Virus record (IMG/VR): IMGVR_UViG_3300046820_001085
Span: 1-57,048 of that record
Direction: 5' to 3' (one strand)
Source of the DNA: a virus
Length of the DNA stretch: 57,048 nt
Under the pieces are notes generated by a model. It was not told the origin of the DNA and searched no databases. It worked only from the letters and a program-made list of their open reading frames with translations. The position numbers were made by a program, and so were the translations under genes. Positions 33,616 to 50,048 of this stretch are shown here, piece after piece; within the stretch, counting starts at the first letter, position 1, and every line of letters starts with the position of its first letter.

Positions 33616-36567
33616 TTAAGGCTTGCCTAATGTATATCCTTGACTGTCTAGATATGCTAATTTAGCGGCTATTCGATTCAATGCTTCAGCTATTGTAGTA
33701 GGAGCTGGACTTGCCCAGTTAGCCGGAACTGCCGGAGCATAGCTACTACTACCACCTAATACACTTGCGCCGGTACTATCAACAATATCACCACCTGCTG
33801 GCAATGTTAAATCACCATCTGTGCCAAACTTCCAAACGCTGACTGTGCCTTCATTGATGCTGGAACCAATTTCAACACCTTGTGTGCTTGGTCCATAAAG
33901 TCCTGGCATCTTAACATAGTTGTAGTCGTCACCAAAGTATAAATCTGTTGAACTATTTTGTCCTGCTGGCCGCATAATGTGGAAGTGACTTGGGCCGCCG
34001 GGTTCTGGCAATGCACCAAACTCTAAACCACCACGACTTGTTACCATGCTCACAACACCATTTGTGCCCACGCTGACTGAATAGTTGTTAGTACCGTCTG
34101 TGTTTGTTATTTCGCTGATTGTTACAGCAGGAGCACTATCACCATATAAGCTGCCGGTGACAGCAACGCCATCGCCGTCAAAGCCGCTACTGCTGTTGTC
34201 GTTGCCATAGCCACCGTCCTCTCCGCTAGTACCAATAATGTTAATGTCAGCACCTGTGGCAAATACGCCAAAAATACCTGCTTGGTAGGTAACAACATAG
34301 TCACCACCGCCAAAAGCACTTGCGCCGGTCACTACATTGCCATCGTTATAACTAATTTCTGTTTCCAAATTGGTGTGAATGGCATTAGCACCATCGTATT
34401 CATCATCGCCGCCGTCATCGATACTATAATCTGGCCATATTTCACTAGGACGAGGCAATGTACCTGTTACAGTATAACTTAGAATTGCGCCAAAGCTCAC
34501 GCCAGTAATTGTTACAGTAACATCGTTGTCGGGTGTTAGCAGAAAATTGCCATTAGCATCTTGAATTGTGTTACCTGGAATGACATGCACATCGTTGACT
34601 TCGTGTGTATTTGGTGCACCTTGTCCCCAACTGCCTAGGTCCAGCGTGTCGTTGTTCATGTTATAGGATATACCACTAAAGCCAGCACCATCACCAGTAG
34701 TGTACTGAGGACTGATACTAAATTGATTATTAACATCGAAGAACTCTAGGTCAACTTTTGGATTGGGGATGATTGTGTTAAAGTTACTAAAGTTAGCGTA
34801 GAATGCTGTCTTCATTTCTGCGACATTATTATAAGTGCCTTCGGTGCCACCGTCTAAAATAACATTGTCAATCACTGCTTCGACAAATGTTTTTAATGTT
34901 GTTGTTTGTGTTTGAACATCCCAATCGGAACCATCACCGATTACAACTAACATTGCTACAATATCACTGCCAGTTAATCCTGTTACTTGGAAGTCATCAC
35001 TGTTAGTAGATGTGTCAATGGCACTAGTTGGTGTAACTGTATCTTTGTAAATTACTAGCTTGTTGATGGGACCGTTGTTATCATCGCCGTTGTTATACAT
35101 TGTACCATAGTGTGCTCTAAAGCCTTTGTATGGTGCTAGTAATCCGTTGCTGCCAGTAGTTGCTGAGATTGTAACTGTGCCATCACTTGAATTTGTTGTA
35201 ATAGCAATACCATCTCCTGCAACTAATGCTAATTCATTACCGGCTTCGTCGGCTAATACATCATCTTGGCCAAGCACAGCTACTTTAGTAAATCCACCAG
35301 CACTACTACCGCCGCCTAACACAGAGTTGCCATTACTGTCTTTGATGTCGCCACCTGCAGGCAGTGTTAGATTACCATCTGCGCCAAATGTCCATTCGTT
35401 TTGGTCACCGCTAAAATCTGTAGTTAAGATAATGTCAGTTGGTCTCAGGCTAAACTGTGTAGTTCTGTTGCCTGACTCCACATCACGGTTTTGTAGGCTC
35501 AGGGTTACGCCGCCTGGCTCGCCTTCGACTGTGGGATTGAATACTCTAAGATTCAAATCATTACCTTGTTGAGCAAAGATATGCCCAGGTGTAGTTAAAT
35601 TACCATCAGTTTCAAAACGCCAAACATTTTGATCGCCACCATTGTTATCATTGGTGCCAATCTCAACACCGTATGCTGGATTTTGACCATATGCGGCTGG
35701 GCGTTGAAGAACATAGTTGTAGTCGTCGCCAAAGTACAAGTCTGTGCCACCGCTGCCATTTTCCCCCATGGGTCGCATAATGTGGAAGTGTGTTGGGCCA
35801 CCTGGTTCTGGCTGTGCACCAAACTCCAGACCGCCGCGAGCAGTTACCATAGTAACAACACCATTAGTAGCCACACTAACCGAGTATGTACCTATGCCAT
35901 CTGTGTTGGTAATTTCACTTATATTACCGCTACTACCACCAGGTGTCACCCATTCAGTGTTGTAATCATCGCCGTCAATTTTAGCAAGAACTTGTCCAGT
36001 TGTACCTCCTGTTGGCACACCTTGGCCAGGTGCTCCATCATTGCCAGGTGCTCCATCGTTGCCGTTCATACCTGCGGCTCCTGTATCGCCTTTTGGTCCC
36101 TGTGCGCCTGCGGCGCCATCATTACCAGCAGGTCCCGTGGTCAATGTTGGCTTGCCAGTTAAGTCAGCATAAGCACCTGAGAACAATGTTGGCTTGCCAG
36201 TTAAGTCAGCATAAGCACCTGAGAACAATGCTGGCTTGCCAGTTACAGCGGTCCAGGCAACACTGGTAATAAACCCACTGTCGTTTGTTAAGTCGCTTAC
36301 TTTACTTGGGATACTTGGTTTGCTTGTTAAGTCAGCGTAAGATCCGCTTGTAGCAACAGCGGCAAAGCTTGGCTTGCCTGTAATGCTACTCCAGCTAGTA
36401 GGGCCTCCGCCACCACTACCTCCACCATTGATTAGTTCACCACCTGGGGTACTTCCGTTGTGGAAGTACAAATATCCGTCTCTATAGGTGATTTCACCAA
36501 AACGTCCCAAGTGGTCGTCGGGTGTTGTGTCGTTCACCCTGAACGTATAAATTTTACGAGCTGTCAT
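33616..36567 (-). CDS. Collagen-like tail fibre with duplicated HFHIMRP modules
   Basis: This 983-residue fibre starts with an N-terminal segment typical of fibres (GEITYRDGYLYFHNGSTPGGE), then SSITGKPS/YADLTGKPT repeats, a collagen-like Gly-X-Y stretch (residues about 145-183) and two copies of a large module: 'ISEITNTDG-YSVSV-TNGVV-MVT-RGGLEFGA-PEPGGP-HFHIMRP' followed by DLYFGDDYNYV and W-F-TDG-LT-P (near 205-320 and 830-950). The HxH in each copy could bind metal, as in T4 gp12. It is expressed from a minus-strand late element and is separate from the main fibre block. Plus-strand open frames inside it are shadows. Confidence 0.88.
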   Translation of the reverse strand: MTARKIYTFRVNDTTPDDHLGRFGEITYRDGYLYFHNGSTPGGELINGGGSGGGGPTSWSSITGKPSFAAVATSGSYADLTSKPSIPSKVSDLTNDSGFITSVAWTAVTGKPALFSGAYADLTGKPTLFSGAYADLTGKPTLTTGPAGNDGAAGAQGPKGDTGAAGMNGNDGAPGNDGAPGQGVPTGGTTGQVLAKIDGDDYNTEWVTPGGSSGNISEITNTDGIGTYSVSVATNGVVTMVTARGGLEFGAQPEPGGPTHFHIMRPMGENGSGGTDLYFGDDYNYVLQRPAAYGQNPAYGVEIGTNDNNGGDQNVWRFETDGNLTTPGHIFAQQGNDLNLRVFNPTVEGEPGGVTLSLQNRDVESGNRTTQFSLRPTDIILTTDFSGDQNEWTFGADGNLTLPAGGDIKDSNGNSVLGGGSSAGGFTKVAVLGQDDVLADEAGNELALVAGDGIAITTNSSDGTVTISATTGSNGLLAPYKGFRAHYGTMYNNGDDNNGPINKLVIYKDTVTPTSAIDTSTNSDDFQVTGLTGSDIVAMLVVIGDGSDWDVQTQTTTLKTFVEAVIDNVILDGGTEGTYNNVAEMKTAFYANFSNFNTIIPNPKVDLEFFDVNNQFSISPQYTTGDGAGFSGISYNMNNDTLDLGSWGQGAPNTHEVNDVHVIPGNTIQDANGNFLLTPDNDVTVTITGVSFGAILSYTVTGTLPRPSEIWPDYSIDDGGDDEYDGANAIHTNLETEISYNDGNVVTGASAFGGGDYVVTYQAGIFGVFATGADINIIGTSGEDGGYGNDNSSSGFDGDGVAVTGSLYGDSAPAVTISEITNTDGTNNYSVSVGTNGVVSMVTSRGGLEFGALPEPGGPSHFHIMRPAGQNSSTDLYFGDDYNYVKMPGLYGPSTQGVEIGSSINEGTVSVWKFGTDGDLTLPAGGDIVDSTGASVLGGSSSYAPAVPANWASPAPTTIAEALNRIAAKLAYLDSQGYTLGKP
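36145..36228 (-). repeat. 42-bp tandem repeat in the fibre gene
   Basis: Two adjacent near-identical 42-bp units encode LFSGAYADLTGKPT twice (residues 114-141), with diverged copies before them. Such exact repeats allow slippage that changes fibre length. Confidence 0.8.
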
Positions 36568-42193: not shown

Positions 42194-42327
42194 GGCAAAA
42201 ATATATTTTTAGGCCTGCTCAAAAAACCGGTGTTTTTACGGTAAGTATACGTAACCCCACTATCAGTTTCTCCGCTTTGGCATAATATGACTATACATTG
42301 CCGGCGGAGTGTGTTATTATAGATACT

Positions 42328-43785
42328 ATGCCAGGAATAACAAGACTAGAAATTAAAGACGAAGTAAATGTAAAGTTCCATGAACTGGATGCTAGTACAA
42401 GACGTCGTTGTGAGTCCAAATTAAAATACCAGTTGCCGTATGCTTACCACGTGCCTGCTTTCCGTTTAGGAAGGTGGGATGGTAAGATTGGATTTTTTAC
42501 TACTGCTGGAGCCACTTATATTAACTTACTGGATAGGATACTGCCTATCTTAGATGAGGAAGGTTGGCAAATTGAAATCGATGATCAAAGACAACAGCAC
42601 AATCTTAATTTTACAGAAGTTACCGAGGATACGTTTAGTCACATACTTTGGCCTAAAGGACACCCAGCAGAAGGTCAGCCAATTAAGATCCGTGACTACC
42701 AAGTAGAGTGTATCAATCGTTATCTTGCTAACCCGCATGGCGTCCAGGAAATTGCCACAGGCGCAGGTAAAACACTAATGACAGCGGCCATGAGTTTAAC
42801 ATGTGAGCCGTTTGGACGTACACTTGTTATTGTACCTAACAAAGACTTGGTTAGACAAACACATGCTGACTATGTTAACATGGGTCTGGATGTTGGTGTG
42901 TACTTTGGTGATGAGAAAGATCTAGGACATACACATACTATTGCAACATGGCAAAGTATTAACACACTTATCAAGAGACACAAGGAAGGTCTTAGTGAAA
43001 TAGGCATTGATGCTATTGTAGATGGTCTGGTTGCAGTTATTGTTGACGAAGTACACATGGCCAAGGCAGATGTGTTACGTACAATGCTAACTGGCCCGTT
43101 CGCACATATCCCAATTCGTTGGGGACTAACAGGTACTATCCCAAAAGAAGAACACGAGTACATTAGTTTGTTAGCATGTTTGGGTCCTGTGCTACACAGA
43201 CTACAGGCAAGCGAACTTCAGGACATAGGTGTTCTTTCTAACTGCCATGTCAAGGTATTACAGTTTGATGATAAAGTTGAATACAAAACTTATCAAGAGG
43301 AACTAACATACCTAACATCAAATGAAAAGCGCATGGACGAGCTTTCCAAAACAATTGATGCTATTAGTAAAACAGGCAATACACTTGTGCTAGTTGATCG
43401 TATTGCTTCGGGCAAGATGCTGGTTGAACGATTGCCAGAGAGTGTATTTGTTAGCGGCGCAATGAAAAGTAAAGACAGAAAAGACGAGTACGATGAAGTT
43501 ACCACTGCTGACAATAAAGTCATTGTAGCAACATATGGCGTGGCTGCTGTGGGTATTAACATTCCACGTATTTTTAATTTGGTTTTAGTAGAACCTGGCA
43601 AGAGCTTTGTGCGAGTAATTCAAAGTATTGGCCGAGGCATCAGGAAAGCACAAGACAAAGACTTTGTCCAAATATGGGACATAACAAGTACAGCAAAGTT
43701 TGCTAAACGGCATTTAGCCAAGCGCAAGAAGTTTTACGAAGAAGCAAACTATCCTTACCAAACAGAAAAGGTAATTTATAAATGA
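42328..43785 (+). CDS. uvsW: DNA/RNA helicase-ATPase UvsW
   Basis: The protein is 485 residues from ATG 42328; an in-frame TTG at 42298 has no support. N-terminal domain (1-115) with AFRLGRWDGKIGFFTTAG is typical of UvsW. SF2 motifs: Walker A ATGAGKT (143-149), DEVH (240-243), LTGT (267-270), ATYGVAAVGINIPR and QSIGRGIRK (motif VI). T4 UvsW (503 aa) unwinds branched DNA and R-loops and promotes the switch from origin- to recombination-dependent replication. A possible -10 box TATTAT (42315-42320) would give a near-leaderless mRNA, but the -35 is weak. Confidence 0.95.
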   Translation: MPGITRLEIKDEVNVKFHELDASTRRRCESKLKYQLPYAYHVPAFRLGRWDGKIGFFTTAGATYINLLDRILPILDEEGWQIEIDDQRQQHNLNFTEVTEDTFSHILWPKGHPAEGQPIKIRDYQVECINRYLANPHGVQEIATGAGKTLMTAAMSLTCEPFGRTLVIVPNKDLVRQTHADYVNMGLDVGVYFGDEKDLGHTHTIATWQSINTLIKRHKEGLSEIGIDAIVDGLVAVIVDEVHMAKADVLRTMLTGPFAHIPIRWGLTGTIPKEEHEYISLLACLGPVLHRLQASELQDIGVLSNCHVKVLQFDDKVEYKTYQEELTYLTSNEKRMDELSKTIDAISKTGNTLVLVDRIASGKMLVERLPESVFVSGAMKSKDRKDEYDEVTTADNKVIVATYGVAAVGINIPRIFNLVLVEPGKSFVRVIQSIGRGIRKAQDKDFVQIWDITSTAKFAKRHLAKRKKFYEEANYPYQTEKVIYK

Positions 43786-44288
43786 ACATTTTAACAGTAA
43801 ACAATCAGACATACGACTTAGATAGGTTGCCTGAGGAGATAGATGAGGATCTTCGTTACGGAGTACTAGACTACAGCAACAGTTCTGATGTTGACTATAT
43901 GTTTGTGCCATTGGTTTTCTTGGAAAGCTTCAGTTGCCCTGCGGCAGTACTACGAATAGGAAAGCATGAATTAAAGGTTCCACTGGATTGGTCACTGATC
44001 ATTGGCGAACCTGATCACGGAGAACCAGAAGTTATTAACGTAATGAGTTTGAACGACCGCGGCTTCTCGGCATTTGTGTTTAATCCCATCAATGGATACA
44101 AACCAGAGTGGCAAAAGGTTGAAGTAATCAACATCTATCAAGAAGTTAAATGGTATGTACCAAAGTTAAAGTTTGGTCATATCTTGGCTGTGCCACTTGA
44201 AAAGGGTGAGCAACCTATGTGTGCGTTCTTTCTCAAAGAGACAAATAAGATTCCAGAAGTACTTGACTTAAACAAGATTTGGTTTTAA
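43782..44288 (+). CDS. Hypothetical protein coupled to uvsW
   Basis: This 168-residue protein overlaps the uvsW stop by 4 bases (ATGA). It is rich in beta-strand-type sequence (VPLVFLESFSCPAAVLRIGKHELKVPLDWSLIIG) and ends with LDLNKIWF. No catalytic motif. The place between uvsW and other replication genes suggests an accessory replication role, unproved. Confidence 0.65.
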   Translation: MNILTVNNQTYDLDRLPEEIDEDLRYGVLDYSNSSDVDYMFVPLVFLESFSCPAAVLRIGKHELKVPLDWSLIIGEPDHGEPEVINVMSLNDRGFSAFVFNPINGYKPEWQKVEVINIYQEVKWYVPKLKFGHILAVPLEKGEQPMCAFFLKETNKIPEVLDLNKIWF

Positions 44289-44297
44289 AATACTAGC

Positions 44298-44789
44298 ATG
44301 GCAACTAAGAAAAAAGAATCTGCTAGTGCAAAATACAAAGTTCCAATTGATCAAATTATGGCGGCAGTAGACCTCCGCAACGGAGCGTATTACTCTAAAC
44401 TTGGTGATGAGGACAAGAAAACTGTAAGTACTTACATGGCTCAGCGTTGGGCAAGTCAAGTACAAGGTACTAGGGATGTACAGGAAGAATACTTGGTTAG
44501 TGTCAATGAGTACAGTAATGTTGACTATATTGCTACCACCAGCGCACATGAAGAACTGAGATGGCGAGCTCTTGCGCTATGCGGATTAGGCTTTAAACAA
44601 CGCCACGAGTTCATCCCACCAATTGGTGTAAAGAAGGACAAGTTAACAGAGTGGTTAATTAAACAGTTCCCATCGATGAGCAATGAAGAGATTGACTTGT
44701 TTAAAACAATCAACGGCACAGATGTGTTTGAGGACATTGCTGTTTCCCAAAACATGGGTAATAAAGAACTTAAAGATTTGTTTAAATAA
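44298..44789 (+). CDS. Replication-block protein, possible clamp-loader-small-subunit-like
   Basis: This 163-residue helical protein (MATKKKESASAKYKVPIDQIMAAVDLRNGAYY...). Its run 'VSVNEYSNVDYIATTSAHEELRWRALALCGLG' followed by 'KKDKLTEWLIKQF' and a C-terminal helix pair loosely resembles the order of features in T4-like gp62 (asparagine-rich loop, basic R/K cluster, final helices), but no diagnostic motif is present and no gp44 or gp45 is adjacent. I therefore call it unknown, with gp62 as a weak option. Stop overlaps the next start by one base. Confidence 0.6.
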   Translation: MATKKKESASAKYKVPIDQIMAAVDLRNGAYYSKLGDEDKKTVSTYMAQRWASQVQGTRDVQEEYLVSVNEYSNVDYIATTSAHEELRWRALALCGLGFKQRHEFIPPIGVKKDKLTEWLIKQFPSMSNEEIDLFKTINGTDVFEDIAVSQNMGNKELKDLFK

Positions 44790-45481
44790 TGACAATGGAT
44801 TATCAATGTAAATTTTGCGGTAAAGCTTTTACACGCGAACGTACCTTAAGTAGCCATATGTGTGAGAAAAAGCGCAGGTGGATGTGTAAGGACGATATGG
44901 ATAGTCGTATGGCGTTTAGTATTTGGACAGACTTTATGAAGTTTGTAAGTCCAAACACTAAGAAAGCCAAAACTGTCGAGGACTTTATACGTAGTCAGGA
45001 TTACATTGGTTTTGTAAAATTTGCTAATTACTTGATAGAGCTCAAGCCAGTTGAAAGTGACAAGTTTATACAGTGGATTTTTAAGATGGGAGTTCGATTA
45101 AGTGATTGGCAACGACCCGGGACCTATCAACTCTACGTTCAAGAAGCCGCTAAAAAAGAAACAGCTGAACGTGCTTTGGAAAGAGCCATACTCGTCATGA
45201 GAGAGTGGGGTGAGGCAACTGGACAAGACTGGCAAAAGTTTTTTAACAAGATTGCGCCTGTAACAGGAATGAACTTGATAGTCATGGGCAGAATTAGTCC
45301 ATGGATTATATATTCCACTGATGCGGCACAAACATTATTAGACAGGATGGAGCCAGGACAGGTTGATACAGTGGCAAAACATGTGGATACAGGATGGTGG
45401 ATAAAAAAACTAAAGACAAATCAGGACGAAGTCCAGTGGATCAACACCACGATGGCGCAAGCACTAGATACGCTATGCTAG
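44789..45481 (+). CDS. Zinc-finger protein of unknown function
   Basis: This 230-residue protein opens with a C2H2/C2HC finger, C7-x2-C10-x12-H23-x-C25 (CKFCGKAFTRERTLSSHMC), immediately followed by a basic stretch (EKKRRWMC). The rest is helical with many aromatic residues and includes LERAILVMREWGEATGQDWQKFF. The finger suggests DNA or RNA binding in the replication block. Start may be 44789 or the ATG at 44795. Its 3' end overlaps the next open frame by up to 88 nt. Confidence 0.75.
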   Translation: MTMDYQCKFCGKAFTRERTLSSHMCEKKRRWMCKDDMDSRMAFSIWTDFMKFVSPNTKKAKTVEDFIRSQDYIGFVKFANYLIELKPVESDKFIQWIFKMGVRLSDWQRPGTYQLYVQEAAKKETAERALERAILVMREWGEATGQDWQKFFNKIAPVTGMNLIVMGRISPWIIYSTDAAQTLLDRMEPGQVDTVAKHVDTGWWIKKLKTNQDEVQWINTTMAQALDTLC

Positions 45482-45597
45482 AAGCACGCCTAGCAGAGTT
45501 TATTTCTAAGTTTGACACCATGGCAGATGAGATGTCTGATATTAAGAAACAACAGGCCGACTTGATTGAGTTTGTTAAACAACAATTTAAAAAATGA
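45394..45597 (+). CDS. Small coiled-coil protein overlapping the zinc-finger gene
   Basis: The 67-residue frame (MVDKKTKDKSGRSPVDQHH...) contains a coiled-coil end (LEARLAEFISKFDTMADEMSDIKKQQADLIEFVKQQF). From its ATG it overlaps the zinc-finger gene out of frame by 88 nt. A shorter start at ATG 45475 (40 residues, ATGCTAG-type overlap with the upstream stop) is equally possible; neither has a clear ribosome binding site. Stop overlaps the next start by 4 bases. Function unknown; a multimerisation helix. Confidence 0.5.
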   Translation: MVDKKTKDKSGRSPVDQHHDGASTRYAMLEARLAEFISKFDTMADEMSDIKKQQADLIEFVKQQFKK

Positions 45598-46181
45598 ATT
45601 TACCTGACGTTGATATTGACTTTGCTGACAGAGAACAAGTTCTAAGATTATTAAATCATGTTCCTGCATTGCAGGCAATGCCCAACGGCACAAAGCAAAA
45701 GCACAAGACAGGGGTGTACTTTCATCCAGTACCAGTTAATCCCTTTACAGGTTGGTGTGATGTTGATTATCAACATGCAGAAGAGTTGGGATTCTTTAAA
45801 GTTGACTTACTCAATGTAAGTTTGTACCAACGTGTACAGAGCAAAGAACATCTTACACGTTTAGCTGATCAGGAGCCATTATGGGACTTACTTCAACAGG
45901 ACGACTTTGTAAATCTGTTATTTCATTTGAACGGGCACGGGGATATACTGAGGAAGACTTGCCCTACTTCCGTGGAACAATTATCTGCCGTCCTTGCTAT
46001 GATTCGCCCCGCCAAGAGATACTTGATTGGGAAGCCTTGGACGACGATTATGAAGGAAGTATGGAAGAAACCAGAGAATGGCGAGTACTACTTTAAGAAG
46101 AGTCATGCCACAGCTTATGCAGTTGCCATTGTGGCACAGATGAATTTGATCTGCGAACAGATCAGCTACGGATACAGTTAA
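45594..46181 (+). CDS. Miniature DNA polymerase III alpha (DnaE/PolC)-like protein
   Basis: This 195-residue protein condenses hallmarks of C-family polymerases. At the N-terminus LPDVDIDFADREQVLRLL (3-20) parallels the DnaE palm segment PDFDVDF...RDQVIEHV with its catalytic Asp pair. GFFKVDLLNVSLYQRV (66-81) parallels LVKFDFLGLRTLTII with the third Asp (D71). PTSVEQLSAVLAMIRPAKR (124-142) parallels the 'P-x-FEDMIALVALFRPGP' helix. YYFKKSHATAYAVAIVAQMNLI (165-186) parallels 'FNKSH-AAYA-VSYQT-L'. The PHP, most of the fingers, beta-binding and OB regions are absent. It is translated from a 4-base overlap with the upstream gene in the replication block. Activity is uncertain: a nucleotidyltransferase, a decoy of host Pol III or a polymerase-fold regulator are possible. 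Confidence 0.75.
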   Translation: MNLPDVDIDFADREQVLRLLNHVPALQAMPNGTKQKHKTGVYFHPVPVNPFTGWCDVDYQHAEELGFFKVDLLNVSLYQRVQSKEHLTRLADQEPLWDLLQQDDFVNLLFHLNGHGDILRKTCPTSVEQLSAVLAMIRPAKRYLIGKPWTTIMKEVWKKPENGEYYFKKSHATAYAVAIVAQMNLICEQISYGYS

Positions 46182-46552
46182 TTCATTTTACGCACTAGAC
46201 TAATTTGTCTGCGTTTGGTGCGTTTAGTGATAACATTGGTCAAGCTAGTTTGGTGTCCGTGTAGTACTTCAAAATCTTTGGTACTGTAAGTTTTAAGAGT
46301 ATACACAAATCTACGCATTGGTTCTTTTAGAACAATGTTAATTGGTATCAAACGGTTAGAACCCCACCACCATTCCTCGCCCATTTCGACGAATAGCATC
46401 TTGTCCGTTTCATCCTTGAGTAAGTTATAAACATACATAGTGACAACTACAGCATCACTATTTTGTATGATTCCTACCAATTCATTTTCCCCATAACGCA
46501 CCAAACTCATGAACGGGAAGCGTTCTAGGAATTCTTTTACTTTATTATCCAT
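46178..46552 (-). CDS. Hypothetical protein on the minus strand
   Basis: This 124-residue protein (MDNKVKEFLERFPFMSLVRYGENELVGIIQN...) has beta-rich aromatic segments (AVVVTMYVYNLL, GEEWWWGSNRLIPINIVL) and a basic C-terminus (VITKRTKRRQISLVRK). It converges on the Pol III-like gene with a 4-base overlap. A CTAAGTA element lies 6 nt before the ATG, so it may be read from a leaderless late transcript. The basic tail suggests nucleic-acid contact; unknown. Confidence 0.65.
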   Translation of the reverse strand: MDNKVKEFLERFPFMSLVRYGENELVGIIQNSDAVVVTMYVYNLLKDETDKMLFVEMGEEWWWGSNRLIPINIVLKEPMRRFVYTLKTYSTKDFEVLHGHQTSLTNVITKRTKRRQISLVRKMN

Positions 46553-47414: not shown

Positions 47415-48383
47415 ATGAGTATAGTTGAGACAACGTTACGGGCACACCTGCCTGCATTAAAATCAAACACAAACGGTTGGCTGACTATGAATTGCCCTAT
47501 GTGCATTCAAAATGGGCAAGCACGACCAGATACAAAGCATCGTGGTGGCATTAAGTTTGAACAGGATCGTGTAGGCTACCATTGTTTTAATTGCGGCTAT
47601 ACTACAGGATGGCGCCCGGGACAAAGGCTAGGTATCAAACTTATTAAGTTAATGCGTGTGCTAGGCATTGATGAAGGAGATATCCAACGTTTAAAAATAC
47701 AACTATGGGACCAAGTAGTTGAAGATGAAACGTTTGTAGTGGAGCCTTACAAAAAACCAGAATGGCCAGAAATAACTTGGCCATGGACCGTAAGAGATTT
47801 AAACTTAGAAGCCGCAGAGTATCTTGACAGCAGAGGTGTGTTAGAACTAAGCGACTGGTATACTAGTGCAAGCCCTATACAAGGTATGGACAATCGTGTT
47901 ATACTACCTTACATGAGTGATGGCAAGATTGTAGGATACACAGCACGTTGGATTGGTGATGTACCGGATAAGAAAACAGCAAAGATGGTCACAAGCAGAC
48001 CACCAAGCTTTGTATTCAATTTAGATCATCAAAGTCAATATCGCAAGTACACAATCGTAACAGAAGGCGAATATGATGCACTAACACTAGATGGTGTTGC
48101 GGTTATGACCAACAGCATCAGTCCAGAGCAAGCAAAGATTATTGAAGACATTGATAACGAACCAGTGGTACTACCAGACAAAGATCGAGCTGGCATGACA
48201 TTGGCATTGCAAGCGGCAGAATTGGGTTGGAGTGTTGCCTTTCCAGATTGGCCAGATGGAGTTAAGGATGCCAACGATGCGGCACAGCAGTTTGGAAGAG
48301 TTGCTACACTACAAAGTGTGTTATCGGCGATTGAGAGCTCACCATTAAAGATTAAATTATTAGCAAGGCGATGGTGTGTATAA
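47415..48383 (+). CDS. 61: DNA primase (gp61-like)
   Basis: This 322-residue DnaG-type primase has an N-terminal zinc ribbon (C27-x2-C30, C57-x2-C60 in CPMC and CFNC) and a TOPRIM domain with IVTEGEYDALTLDG (E218, D221) and VVLPDKDRAG (D255, D257), then GVKDANDAA. T4 gp61 is 342 aa and synthesises lagging-strand primers with helicase gp41, which is encoded two genes downstream. The C-terminus overlaps the following small gene by 8 nt. Confidence 0.93.
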   Translation: MSIVETTLRAHLPALKSNTNGWLTMNCPMCIQNGQARPDTKHRGGIKFEQDRVGYHCFNCGYTTGWRPGQRLGIKLIKLMRVLGIDEGDIQRLKIQLWDQVVEDETFVVEPYKKPEWPEITWPWTVRDLNLEAAEYLDSRGVLELSDWYTSASPIQGMDNRVILPYMSDGKIVGYTARWIGDVPDKKTAKMVTSRPPSFVFNLDHQSQYRKYTIVTEGEYDALTLDGVAVMTNSISPEQAKIIEDIDNEPVVLPDKDRAGMTLALQAAELGWSVAFPDWPDGVKDANDAAQQFGRVATLQSVLSAIESSPLKIKLLARRWCV

Positions 48384-48573
48384 AGTAAAGGTAGTCTGGC
48401 GGCTAGGACAAGACTCCAGTGAATGGTGGAACCAAGTTTGCATTTGGGCAATAGAAGAATTTGGATTACCAGGCAACAAGTATAAAACAGAACTAACAGA
48501 AGATTATATGATTTTTAATTTTGAAGAACAAGAAAATGCCGCCATAATGGCCTTGCGATGGGGGAATAATTAA
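48376..48573 (+). CDS. Small protein between primase and helicase
   Basis: This 65-residue protein starts at GTG 48376 inside the primase end. It includes SSEWWNQVCIWAIEEFGLPGNKYKT and YMIFNFEEQENAAIMALRWG, an alpha/beta pattern. Its stop overlaps the gp41 ATG by one base. Conserved neighbours of the primosome in aquatic T4-like phages look like this, but the function is unknown. Translational coupling with gp61 and gp41 suggests a primosome accessory. Confidence 0.7.
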   Translation: MYKVKVVWRLGQDSSEWWNQVCIWAIEEFGLPGNKYKTELTEDYMIFNFEEQENAAIMALRWGNN

Positions 48574-50048
48574 TGGATAAAGAATATAGTGTAAGTACGC
48601 AAACCTTGTACTTGCAGTTTCTAATTAGCAGTAGAGACTTAGCGGCAAGATGTAATAACATTTTGGATCCTGATCACTTTGATAGACGTATTAGGAAAGC
48701 CGCTGAGTTTATTAAAGACTATGTTAGCCAACATGGTGATATTCCAGATCCACTGCAAATTAAAGCAGTTGGCGGAGTTGATATTGAAAACATTGGACCC
48801 ACAGCCACACAACATAGCGCATGGTTCTTGGAAGAGTTTGAAAAGTTCTCAAGATACAAAGCATTAGAAAAAGCTATCTTGACAAGCTCGGATATGCTAG
48901 AGAAGCACGAGTATGGTGCAGTTGAGAAGTTAATTAAAGATGCAGTACAAGTTGGATTGCCAAAGACATTTGGTACAGACTACTTTGCAGATCCGGTAGC
49001 ACGCCTTAAAGCAATTAGAGACAACAATGGACAAGTGTCTACAGGCTGGAAAGACTTAGATGACAAACTATACGGTGGCTTTAACAAAGGTGAGCTAAAC
49101 ATTTTTGCTGGAGCATCTGGTGCAGGTAAAAGTTTGTTCTTGCAGAACTTGGCATTGAACTGGGCACAAGCAGGCATGAACACAGTTTACTTTAGTTTAG
49201 AACTTAGCGAGTTGTTGTGTAGTCAGCGTATGGATGCTATGTTAACTGACATGAGCACACGTGACTTGTACAAGCGACTAGATGAAGTTGAGCTCAAGGT
49301 TAAGTCTGCAGGTAAGAAGGGCGGCCTGCTACAAATTGTTCAACTTACCAATGGTATTACAGCCAACGATGTGTTGGCTTGGGTGCGTGAATTCCAAACA
49401 CAACGCAACATTAAAGTGGATGCTATCTTGGTCGACTACTTGGACTTGATGATGCCAGCAAGTCAAAAGATCAGTGTAAGTGACATGTTTGTCAAGGACA
49501 AGTTGGTAGCAGAAGAATTGCGTAACTTGGTTGTAAGCGAACATCTATTATTAGCAACCGCGTCACAGTTAAATCGTAGTGCTGTAGAAAGTGTAGAGTT
49601 TGACCACTCTATGATTGCAGGCGGCTTGAGTAAGATTCAAACAGCTGACAACGTGTTTGGTATCTACAGTACTCCCAGCATGAAAGAACGTGGCACAGTT
49701 CAAATCCAGTTTATGAAAACTCGTTCAAGTTCGGGTGTAGGACAAAAGATTGATTTGAGCTTTAATCCAGATACAATGCGTATCTCTAACTCAGTTGACA
49801 GCGGTGGCAGCACTACAACAAGTACTAAAGATTTGTATAGTAAGATTAGTAGAACAAGCAATATGGGCACAAGTGTTGCAACGCCAACAAGCAGTGGCCC
49901 AACGTCTTGGGAAAAGCCTCAGGCAAAAGAAGGGTTTGATATATCAAAACCAAATTCTGGATTGCCCACAGAAAAGCCCTCAAGTGCTCCAGTTGCTACT
50001 AATGCTAACAGAAACGCCTTAAGGGCTATTGTAAGTAGAGATCTTTAA
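48573..50048 (+). CDS. 41: Replicative DNA helicase (gp41/DnaB-like)
   Basis: This 491-residue helicase has an N-terminal helical domain (1-130) and a RecA-like motor with Walker A GASGAGKS (180-187), FSLELSELLCSQRMDAML, Walker B VDAILVDYLDLM (282-293) and ATASQLNRSA. T4 gp41 is 475 aa. The C-terminal about 80 residues are Ser/Thr/Pro-rich. It unwinds the fork 5'-3' in a hexamer with primase gp61. Start overlaps the upstream stop. Confidence 0.96.
   Translation: MDKEYSVSTQTLYLQFLISSRDLAARCNNILDPDHFDRRIRKAAEFIKDYVSQHGDIPDPLQIKAVGGVDIENIGPTATQHSAWFLEEFEKFSRYKALEKAILTSSDMLEKHEYGAVEKLIKDAVQVGLPKTFGTDYFADPVARLKAIRDNNGQVSTGWKDLDDKLYGGFNKGELNIFAGASGAGKSLFLQNLALNWAQAGMNTVYFSLELSELLCSQRMDAMLTDMSTRDLYKRLDEVELKVKSAGKKGGLLQIVQLTNGITANDVLAWVREFQTQRNIKVDAILVDYLDLMMPASQKISVSDMFVKDKLVAEELRNLVVSEHLLLATASQLNRSAVESVEFDHSMIAGGLSKIQTADNVFGIYSTPSMKERGTVQIQFMKTRSSSGVGQKIDLSFNPDTMRISNSVDSGGSTTTSTKDLYSKISRTSNMGTSVATPTSSGPTSWEKPQAKEGFDISKPNSGLPTEKPSSAPVATNANRNALRAIVSRDL

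What the first reader, a model, noticed from the sequence alone, without database searches (positions are those of the whole stretch)
45594..46181. A 195-residue mini Pol III alpha: all catalytic palm motifs of DnaE/PolC without the rest
Seen: LPDVDIDF (Asp pair), FFKVDLL (third Asp), PTSVEQLSAVLAMIRPAK and YFKKSHATAYA occur in the same order as in DnaE-type replicative polymerases, which are about 1100-1200 aa. Known: T4-like phages normally replicate with a family B polymerase (gp43) and have no family C enzyme. Inference: it may be a minimal nucleotidyltransferase, a phage-adapted subunit, a template-independent enzyme, or a decoy for host Pol III or its clamp and loader. I know of no characterised protein with this architecture.
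Basis: partly seen in the sequence, partly recalled or inferred. Interest (0 to 1): 0.88.

Follow-up and report, generated by a model that had tools for sequence, protein, structure and literature searches.

The report
Half of a split phage polymerase
This small phage protein is the metal-binding half of a stripped-down, two-gene version of the bacterial replication polymerase Pol III; the pair was predicted in 2021 in large phages that also carry a T4-type polymerase, and what it does there is still untested.

Summary
The ORF (45594-46181, 195 aa) and its motifs are real. It belongs to a known phage family, phrog_11778 "DNA polymerase" (E 8e-62), with 90 phage records and hundreds of IMG/VR contigs. 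D5/D7/D9 align with E. coli DnaE D401/D403/D405, K69/D71 with K553/D555 and H171 with H760. D5, D7, D9, H37, G40, K69, D71, R138, P139, H171 and Y175 are invariant in 67 distinct homologues, and dN/dS is about 0.07. An AlphaFold model (pLDDT 92) matches only bacterial Pol III alpha chains in the PDB. It is not the whole palm, however. The preceding DnaE segment with the Gly-Ser nucleotide-binding motif (DnaE 320-392) is a separate protein, phrog_11127, present in 12/12 cultured genomes tested; it ends where this one begins, without inteins. That gene sits beside the clamp loader; ours sits beside primase and helicase. A family B polymerase is also present in all 12. Thumb, most of the fingers, PHP, HhH and clamp-binding parts are missing. 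Iyer et al. 2021 (PMC7824862) already described this "split, minimal Pol III alpha". This is therefore a new member of a published but experimentally untested kind. Most likely it is a two-subunit nucleotidyltransferase working at the fork beside PolB. A decoy is unlikely.

The parts
45594..46181 (+). alphaC: C-terminal (metal- and template-side) half of a split minimal Pol III alpha, 195 aa, phrog_11778
45606..45620 (+). D5-x-D7-x-D9 motif = E. coli DnaE D401/D403/D405
   Evidence: invariant in 67/67; mapping; D401/D403/D555 metal ligands per PMC3919608
45702..45713 (+). H37..G40, counterpart of DnaE KHAGG (H511..G514)
   Evidence: invariant
45798..45806 (+). K69-x-D71 = DnaE K553-x-D555, third catalytic Asp
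   Evidence: invariant
46005..46010 (+). R138-P139 = DnaE R639-P640 of FRPGP
   Evidence: invariant
46095..46106 (+). K168-K-S-H171 = DnaE N757-K758-S759-H760 of FNKSH
   Evidence: K168 66/67, H171 67/67
46178..46552 (-). phrog_11637, convergent gene of unknown function overlapping the alphaC 3' end by 4 bases
   Evidence: convergent in 209 of 218 alphaC loci with room
44789..45481 (+). phrog_11058, 230 aa with an N-terminal C2H2-like zinc finger; conserved neighbour
   Evidence: 184 of 198 loci
44298..44789 (+). phrog_11758, unknown function, conserved neighbour
   Evidence: 138 of 184 loci
43782..44288 (+). phrog_11279, unknown function, conserved neighbour
   Evidence: 129 of 174 loci
42298..43785 (+). 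UvsW-like helicase
   Evidence: 41 of 43 loci
47415..48383 (+). DNA primase (T4 gp61-like place, Toprim)
   Evidence: 178 of 182 loci
48573..50048 (+). DnaB/gp41-like replicative helicase
   Evidence: 53 of 53 loci

Best explanation
The ORF encodes alphaC, one of two subunits of a phage-specific, minimal Pol III alpha. alphaN (phrog_11127, about 170 aa, encoded elsewhere in the genome next to the clamp loader) supplies the Gly-Arg-Gly-Ser nucleotide-binding segment. alphaC supplies the three metal-binding aspartates, the active-site lysine and a shortened fingers region. The two chains are proposed to assemble non-covalently into one Pol beta-like active site and transfer nucleotides in a Mg2+-dependent reaction at the fork, close to primase, gp41 helicase and clamp loader, alongside the family B polymerase that does bulk synthesis. 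Short primer extension or gap filling is the most likely job. Shown here: homology, invariant residues, purifying selection, exact complementarity of the split, co-occurrence, gene neighbours. Inferred: assembly, catalysis, role.
For: Family and motif evidence. DnaE numbering. AlphaFold pLDDT 91.9 and the first 16 PDB fold matches are all bacterial Pol III alpha, DnaE or PolC, before noise. alphaN matches E. coli DnaE 320-392 and ends 1-7 residues after the EFL counterpart in 20/20, while alphaC starts at the D401 motif. Both halves are found in 12/12 cultured genomes examined, and tallies by host genus match across 50,697 phage records. PolB is in 12/12. alphaN lies beside an RFC-like clamp loader in 20/20 IMG/VR loci. 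alphaC lies beside primase in 178/182. Median dN/dS 0.07. Distances of the two halves correlate at r 0.86 over 20 genomes (shared ancestry alone could give this). Same proposal in PMC7824862.
Against: No assay or complex structure exists. alphaC lacks the thumb (28 residues between D9 and H37, versus 106 in DnaE) and most of the fingers, including LRRAMGKK (33 residues from R138 to H171, versus 121), so polymerase activity of the pair alone is uncertain. The profile of alphaC finds no PDB chain at E<=0.01, and TM-scores to Pol III alpha are only 0.38-0.59. The alphaN model is poor (pLDDT 61, shallow alignment). One 280-kb contig with alphaC shows no alphaN, though it may be incomplete. The window itself (57 kb) holds neither alphaN nor PolB.
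Confidence: 0.72

Rival explanations
1. alphaN and alphaC form a nucleotidyltransferase that is not a templated DNA polymerase, for example an end-adding or primer-making enzyme, or one that needs no thumb or fingers.
For: Thumb and the fingers' LRRAMGKK segment are missing while metal ligands, K69 and the GS motif are invariant. The gene lies beside the primase.
Against: The fingers motifs RP and KSH, which belong to the template side in DnaE, are retained and invariant. All homology is to templated polymerases.
Confidence: 0.15
2. Non-catalytic regulator or decoy that binds the host Pol III or its clamp or loader.
For: Small size; large parts of the enzyme missing.
Against: Catalytic aspartates and lysine invariant in 67 distinct homologues down to about 36% identity, across phages of alpha- and gammaproteobacteria; dN/dS 0.07; a matching half that would be pointless for a decoy; fixed place among the phage's own replication genes.
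Confidence: 0.06
3. alphaN and alphaC are the core of a larger multi-subunit replicase in which conserved neighbours (zinc-finger phrog_11058, phrog_11758, phrog_11279, convergent phrog_11637) supply thumb or DNA-binding functions. This extends, rather than contradicts, the best explanation.
For: These genes keep their place next to alphaC in 74-96% of loci; the missing parts of DnaE need a substitute.
Against: No homology of these proteins to polymerase parts was found; neighbours in phage replication clusters may be conserved for expression timing. In Slicko01 and XacN1 these neighbours were not detected by tblastn.
Confidence: 0.2

Closest known systems
Split minimal Pol III alpha of 'group 2.2' jumbo phages (Iyer et al. 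2021, PMC7824862); PHROG families phrog_11778 (C half) and phrog_11127 (N half)
   Same: Same family, same split into an NTP-binding N protein and a Mg2+/template-binding C protein from distant genes, same coexistence with PolB.
   Different: Nothing in kind. Here the split point, invariant residues, gene neighbours and missing parts are measured, and the range is extended to 141-kb phages (Slicko01) and to large numbers of metagenomic phages.
DnaE-type Pol III alpha (C-family, e.g. E. coli DnaE)
   Same: Asp triad, K553, RP and KSH counterparts in order; D405 counterpart present (Asp as in DnaE, Asn in PolC).
   Different: Two chains; no PHP, thumb, most of fingers, HhH, clamp-binding or OB parts.
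Cyanobacterial split DnaE (own knowledge; intein-split cyanobacterial sequences mentioned in PMC3919608)
   Same: dnaE divided between two distant genes.
   Different: There the halves carry split inteins and are spliced into one chain; here neither half has room for an intein.
CBB_328 of phage CBB and gp316 of Atu_ph07, reported as (truncated) Pol III alpha (PMC5259590, PMC6102473)
   Same: Partner half of the same enzyme in relatives of this phage.
   Different: Those are alphaN; this ORF is alphaC. The passages of those papers read here do not pair the two.

Membership tests
phrog_11778 (minimal split Pol III alpha, C half) | Full-length profile match | tested here: met
   E 8.1e-62, residues 5-189 of 195 on 8-194 of 197
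phrog_11778 (minimal split Pol III alpha, C half) | Standalone about 190-aa protein starting at the DxDxD motif | tested here: met
   85 loci, stop-to-stop 192-213 aa where not truncated
phrog_11778 (minimal split Pol III alpha, C half) | Partner N half in the same genome | tested here: inconclusive
   Not in the 57-kb window, a fragment; present in 12/12 cultured relatives and in a 285-kb contig with 83% identical alphaC
C-family DNA polymerase (DnaE/PolC) | Invariant metal ligands D401, D403, D555 | tested here: met
   D5, D7, D71 invariant 67/67
C-family DNA polymerase (DnaE/PolC) | Asp at the D405 position (DnaE groups; Asn in PolC) | tested here: met
   D9 67/67; criterion from PMC3919608
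[quoted passage not shown]
   195 aa, no Pfam domain found; PF07733 not found in the window
C-family DNA polymerase (DnaE/PolC) | Complete palm including the Gly-Ser nucleotide-binding segment | tested here: not met
   Segment is in a separate protein in relatives
C-family DNA polymerase (DnaE/PolC) | Templated DNA polymerase activity | not testable with these tools
   Needs purified proteins
Split-intein DnaE | N- and C-intein halves at the junction | tested here: not met
   alphaN ends 1-7 residues after the EFL counterpart (20/20); alphaC has 0-24 residues before the motif

The most novel reading that the evidence does not exclude
A multi-part phage replicase: alphaN plus alphaC plus phage-specific neighbours act as a dedicated primer-extending polymerase between primase and PolB, giving these phages a mixed bacterial-type (family C) and archaeal/eukaryotic-type (family B) replisome built from minimal, perhaps ancestral, Pol III pieces.
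Probability: 0.2. Interest if true: 0.8.

Novelty: new member of a known kind. Interest (0 to 1): 0.45.

Why it matters
A family C active site divided between two small proteins, in phages that already own a family B replicase, is the smallest Pol III-like unit I know of. If active, it would show how much of the bacterial replicase is needed for catalysis, and would give a mixed replisome that can be tested in laboratory phages such as 121Q, RaK2 or Paride. Iyer et al. also use it as a model of an ancestral Pol III. The idea is published, but no assay was found in the papers searched.

Tried and rejected
Chance motif or artefact: rejected. Truncation of a full-length gene or frameshift: rejected, because the same short ORF is intact in 83 of 85 loci (the other two run off the contig), the 3' end is followed by a conserved convergent gene, and no second half lies nearby. 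Fusion of the two halves: the six-frame motif scan of the loci held at that point found none, so there is no fusion evidence for assembly. Split intein: rejected. Dead PolB compensated by this enzyme: motif searches show catalytic motifs A, B and C in nearly all PolB genes of the group, two interrupted by intein-like inserts at motif C, so PolB looks intact. Pfam gave nothing for the ORF; hmmsearch of the alphaC profile against PDB sequences gave nothing at E<=0.01. A search for diverged alphaN in incomplete contigs found nothing.

Full report
Observation. The window is a 57-kb virus record with T4-type genes: SSB, UvsX-like recombinase, UvsW, primase, gp41-type helicase and terminase. The ORF matches phrog_11778 "DNA polymerase" end to end at E 8e-62 and, weakly, full-length Pol III alpha models. 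Pfam gives nothing. It has 90 relatives among phage records (RaK2, GAP32, 121Q, PBECO4, CBB, Atu_ph07, Phosso, SCTP-2, XacN1, PA5oct, Paride, Slicko01 and others) and at least 447 in IMG/VR.

Anatomy. An alignment to E. coli DnaE, numbered from the solved chain, maps D5/D7/D9 to D401/D403/D405, H37 to H511, K69/D71 to K553/D555, R138-P139 to R639-P640 and H171 to H760. In 67 distinct homologues, down to about 36% identity, D5, D7, D9, H37, G40, K69, D71, R138, P139, H171 and Y175 do not vary, and K168 varies once. A second alignment of 59 gives the same picture. Timinskas et al. state that D401, D403 and D555 coordinate the metals and are absolutely conserved in the C family, and that D405 is Asp in DnaE but Asn in PolC (PMC3919608). 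By that criterion alphaC is DnaE-like. Close relatives show a median dN/dS of 0.07. AlphaFold gives mean pLDDT 91.9. In Foldseek against the PDB the first 16 matches are all bacterial Pol III alpha chains (DnaE or PolC), followed by noise. TM-scores are modest (0.38-0.59), as expected when thumb and fingers are cut out: DnaE has 106 residues from D405 to H511 and 121 from R639 to H760, alphaC has 28 and 33.

The missing half. In DnaE the segment just before D401 holds the Gly-Arg-Gly-Ser nucleotide-binding motif. alphaC begins at the D401 motif and lacks it. Atu_ph07 gp316 and its family, phrog_11127 (about 170 aa), supply exactly that segment. Their profile matches E. coli DnaE 320-392, and the proteins stop 1-7 residues after the counterpart of FERFL in 20 of 20 genomes. 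There is no room for an intein on either side. Both halves occur in 12 of 12 cultured genomes examined, in large IMG/VR contigs (4 of 5 of 280 kb or more), and in nearly equal numbers per host genus across the phage collection. The window is a fragment without alphaN, but a 285-kb contig with an 83% identical alphaC has it.

Surroundings. alphaC lies between a conserved set of unknown genes (phrog_11279, 11758, 11058 with a C2H2-like finger) and the primase and gp41 helicase genes; a convergent gene, phrog_11637, abuts or overlaps its 3' end. Counts over 232 loci (some contigs counted more than once, because overlapping searches fetched them again): convergent gene 209/218, phrog_11058 184/198, primase 178/182, helicase 53/53, UvsW 41/43. 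alphaN lies about 1-3 kb upstream of an RFC-like clamp loader in 20 of 20 IMG/VR loci. In Slicko01 the clamp loader is beside alphaC itself. All 12 cultured genomes also encode a family B polymerase, and 9 encode a DnaQ-type exonuclease. PolB motifs look intact, apart from intein-like inserts in two phages.

Mechanism. The simplest reading is a two-subunit nucleotidyltransferase whose active site forms when alphaN and alphaC meet. Its position among primase, helicase and clamp-loader genes, and the presence of PolB, point to a fork-associated secondary polymerase such as primer extension or gap filling. Lacking a thumb and most of the fingers, it is unlikely to be processive alone. Shown: homology, invariance, selection, exact complementarity, co-occurrence, neighbourhood. 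Not shown: interaction, catalysis, role. The decoy idea is disfavoured by invariant catalytic residues and the existence of the matching half.

Known or new. Iyer et al. [quoted passage not shown] PMC5259590 noted CBB_328 as a truncated alpha and PMC6102473 noted gp316. No experimental work was found in the searched library, which lacks most subscription journals. The finding is therefore a new member of a published, untested kind. What is added here is the residue-level invariance, the exact split point without inteins, the list of missing parts, the two conserved gene neighbourhoods, and the extension to 141-kb phages and abundant metagenomic relatives.

Noticed in passing
46178-46552 (-): A convergent gene of unknown function (phrog_11637) overlaps the 3' end of the polymerase half by 4 bases and keeps its convergent orientation just downstream in 209 of 218 loci, an unusual single reversed gene inside a replication cluster.
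   Followed up: partly
44789-45481 (+): 230-aa protein with an N-terminal C2H2-like zinc finger, phrog_11058 of unknown function, kept next to the polymerase half in 184 of 198 loci.
   Followed up: partly
L109 (Salicola phage SCTP-2) and L118/L130 (Pseudomonas phage Paride): Their family B polymerase genes carry intein-like inserts at the catalytic YGDTDS motif.
   Followed up: no
L115/L123 (Atu_ph07), L110/L120 (Slicko01): The family B polymerase is divided between two adjacent ORFs, with motif A and motif C in different chains.
   Followed up: no
L137-L156: The partner half alphaN is encoded about 1-3 kb upstream of an RFC-like clamp loader in all 20 loci.
   Followed up: yes
33616-36567 (-): 983-aa ORF with weak matches to collagen-like tail proteins, on the opposite strand to its neighbours.
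   Followed up: no
L170 (280-kb IMG/VR contig, G027): Has alphaC but no detectable alphaN, the only contig of 280 kb or more of this kind; may be incomplete or carry a diverged alphaN.
   Followed up: partly
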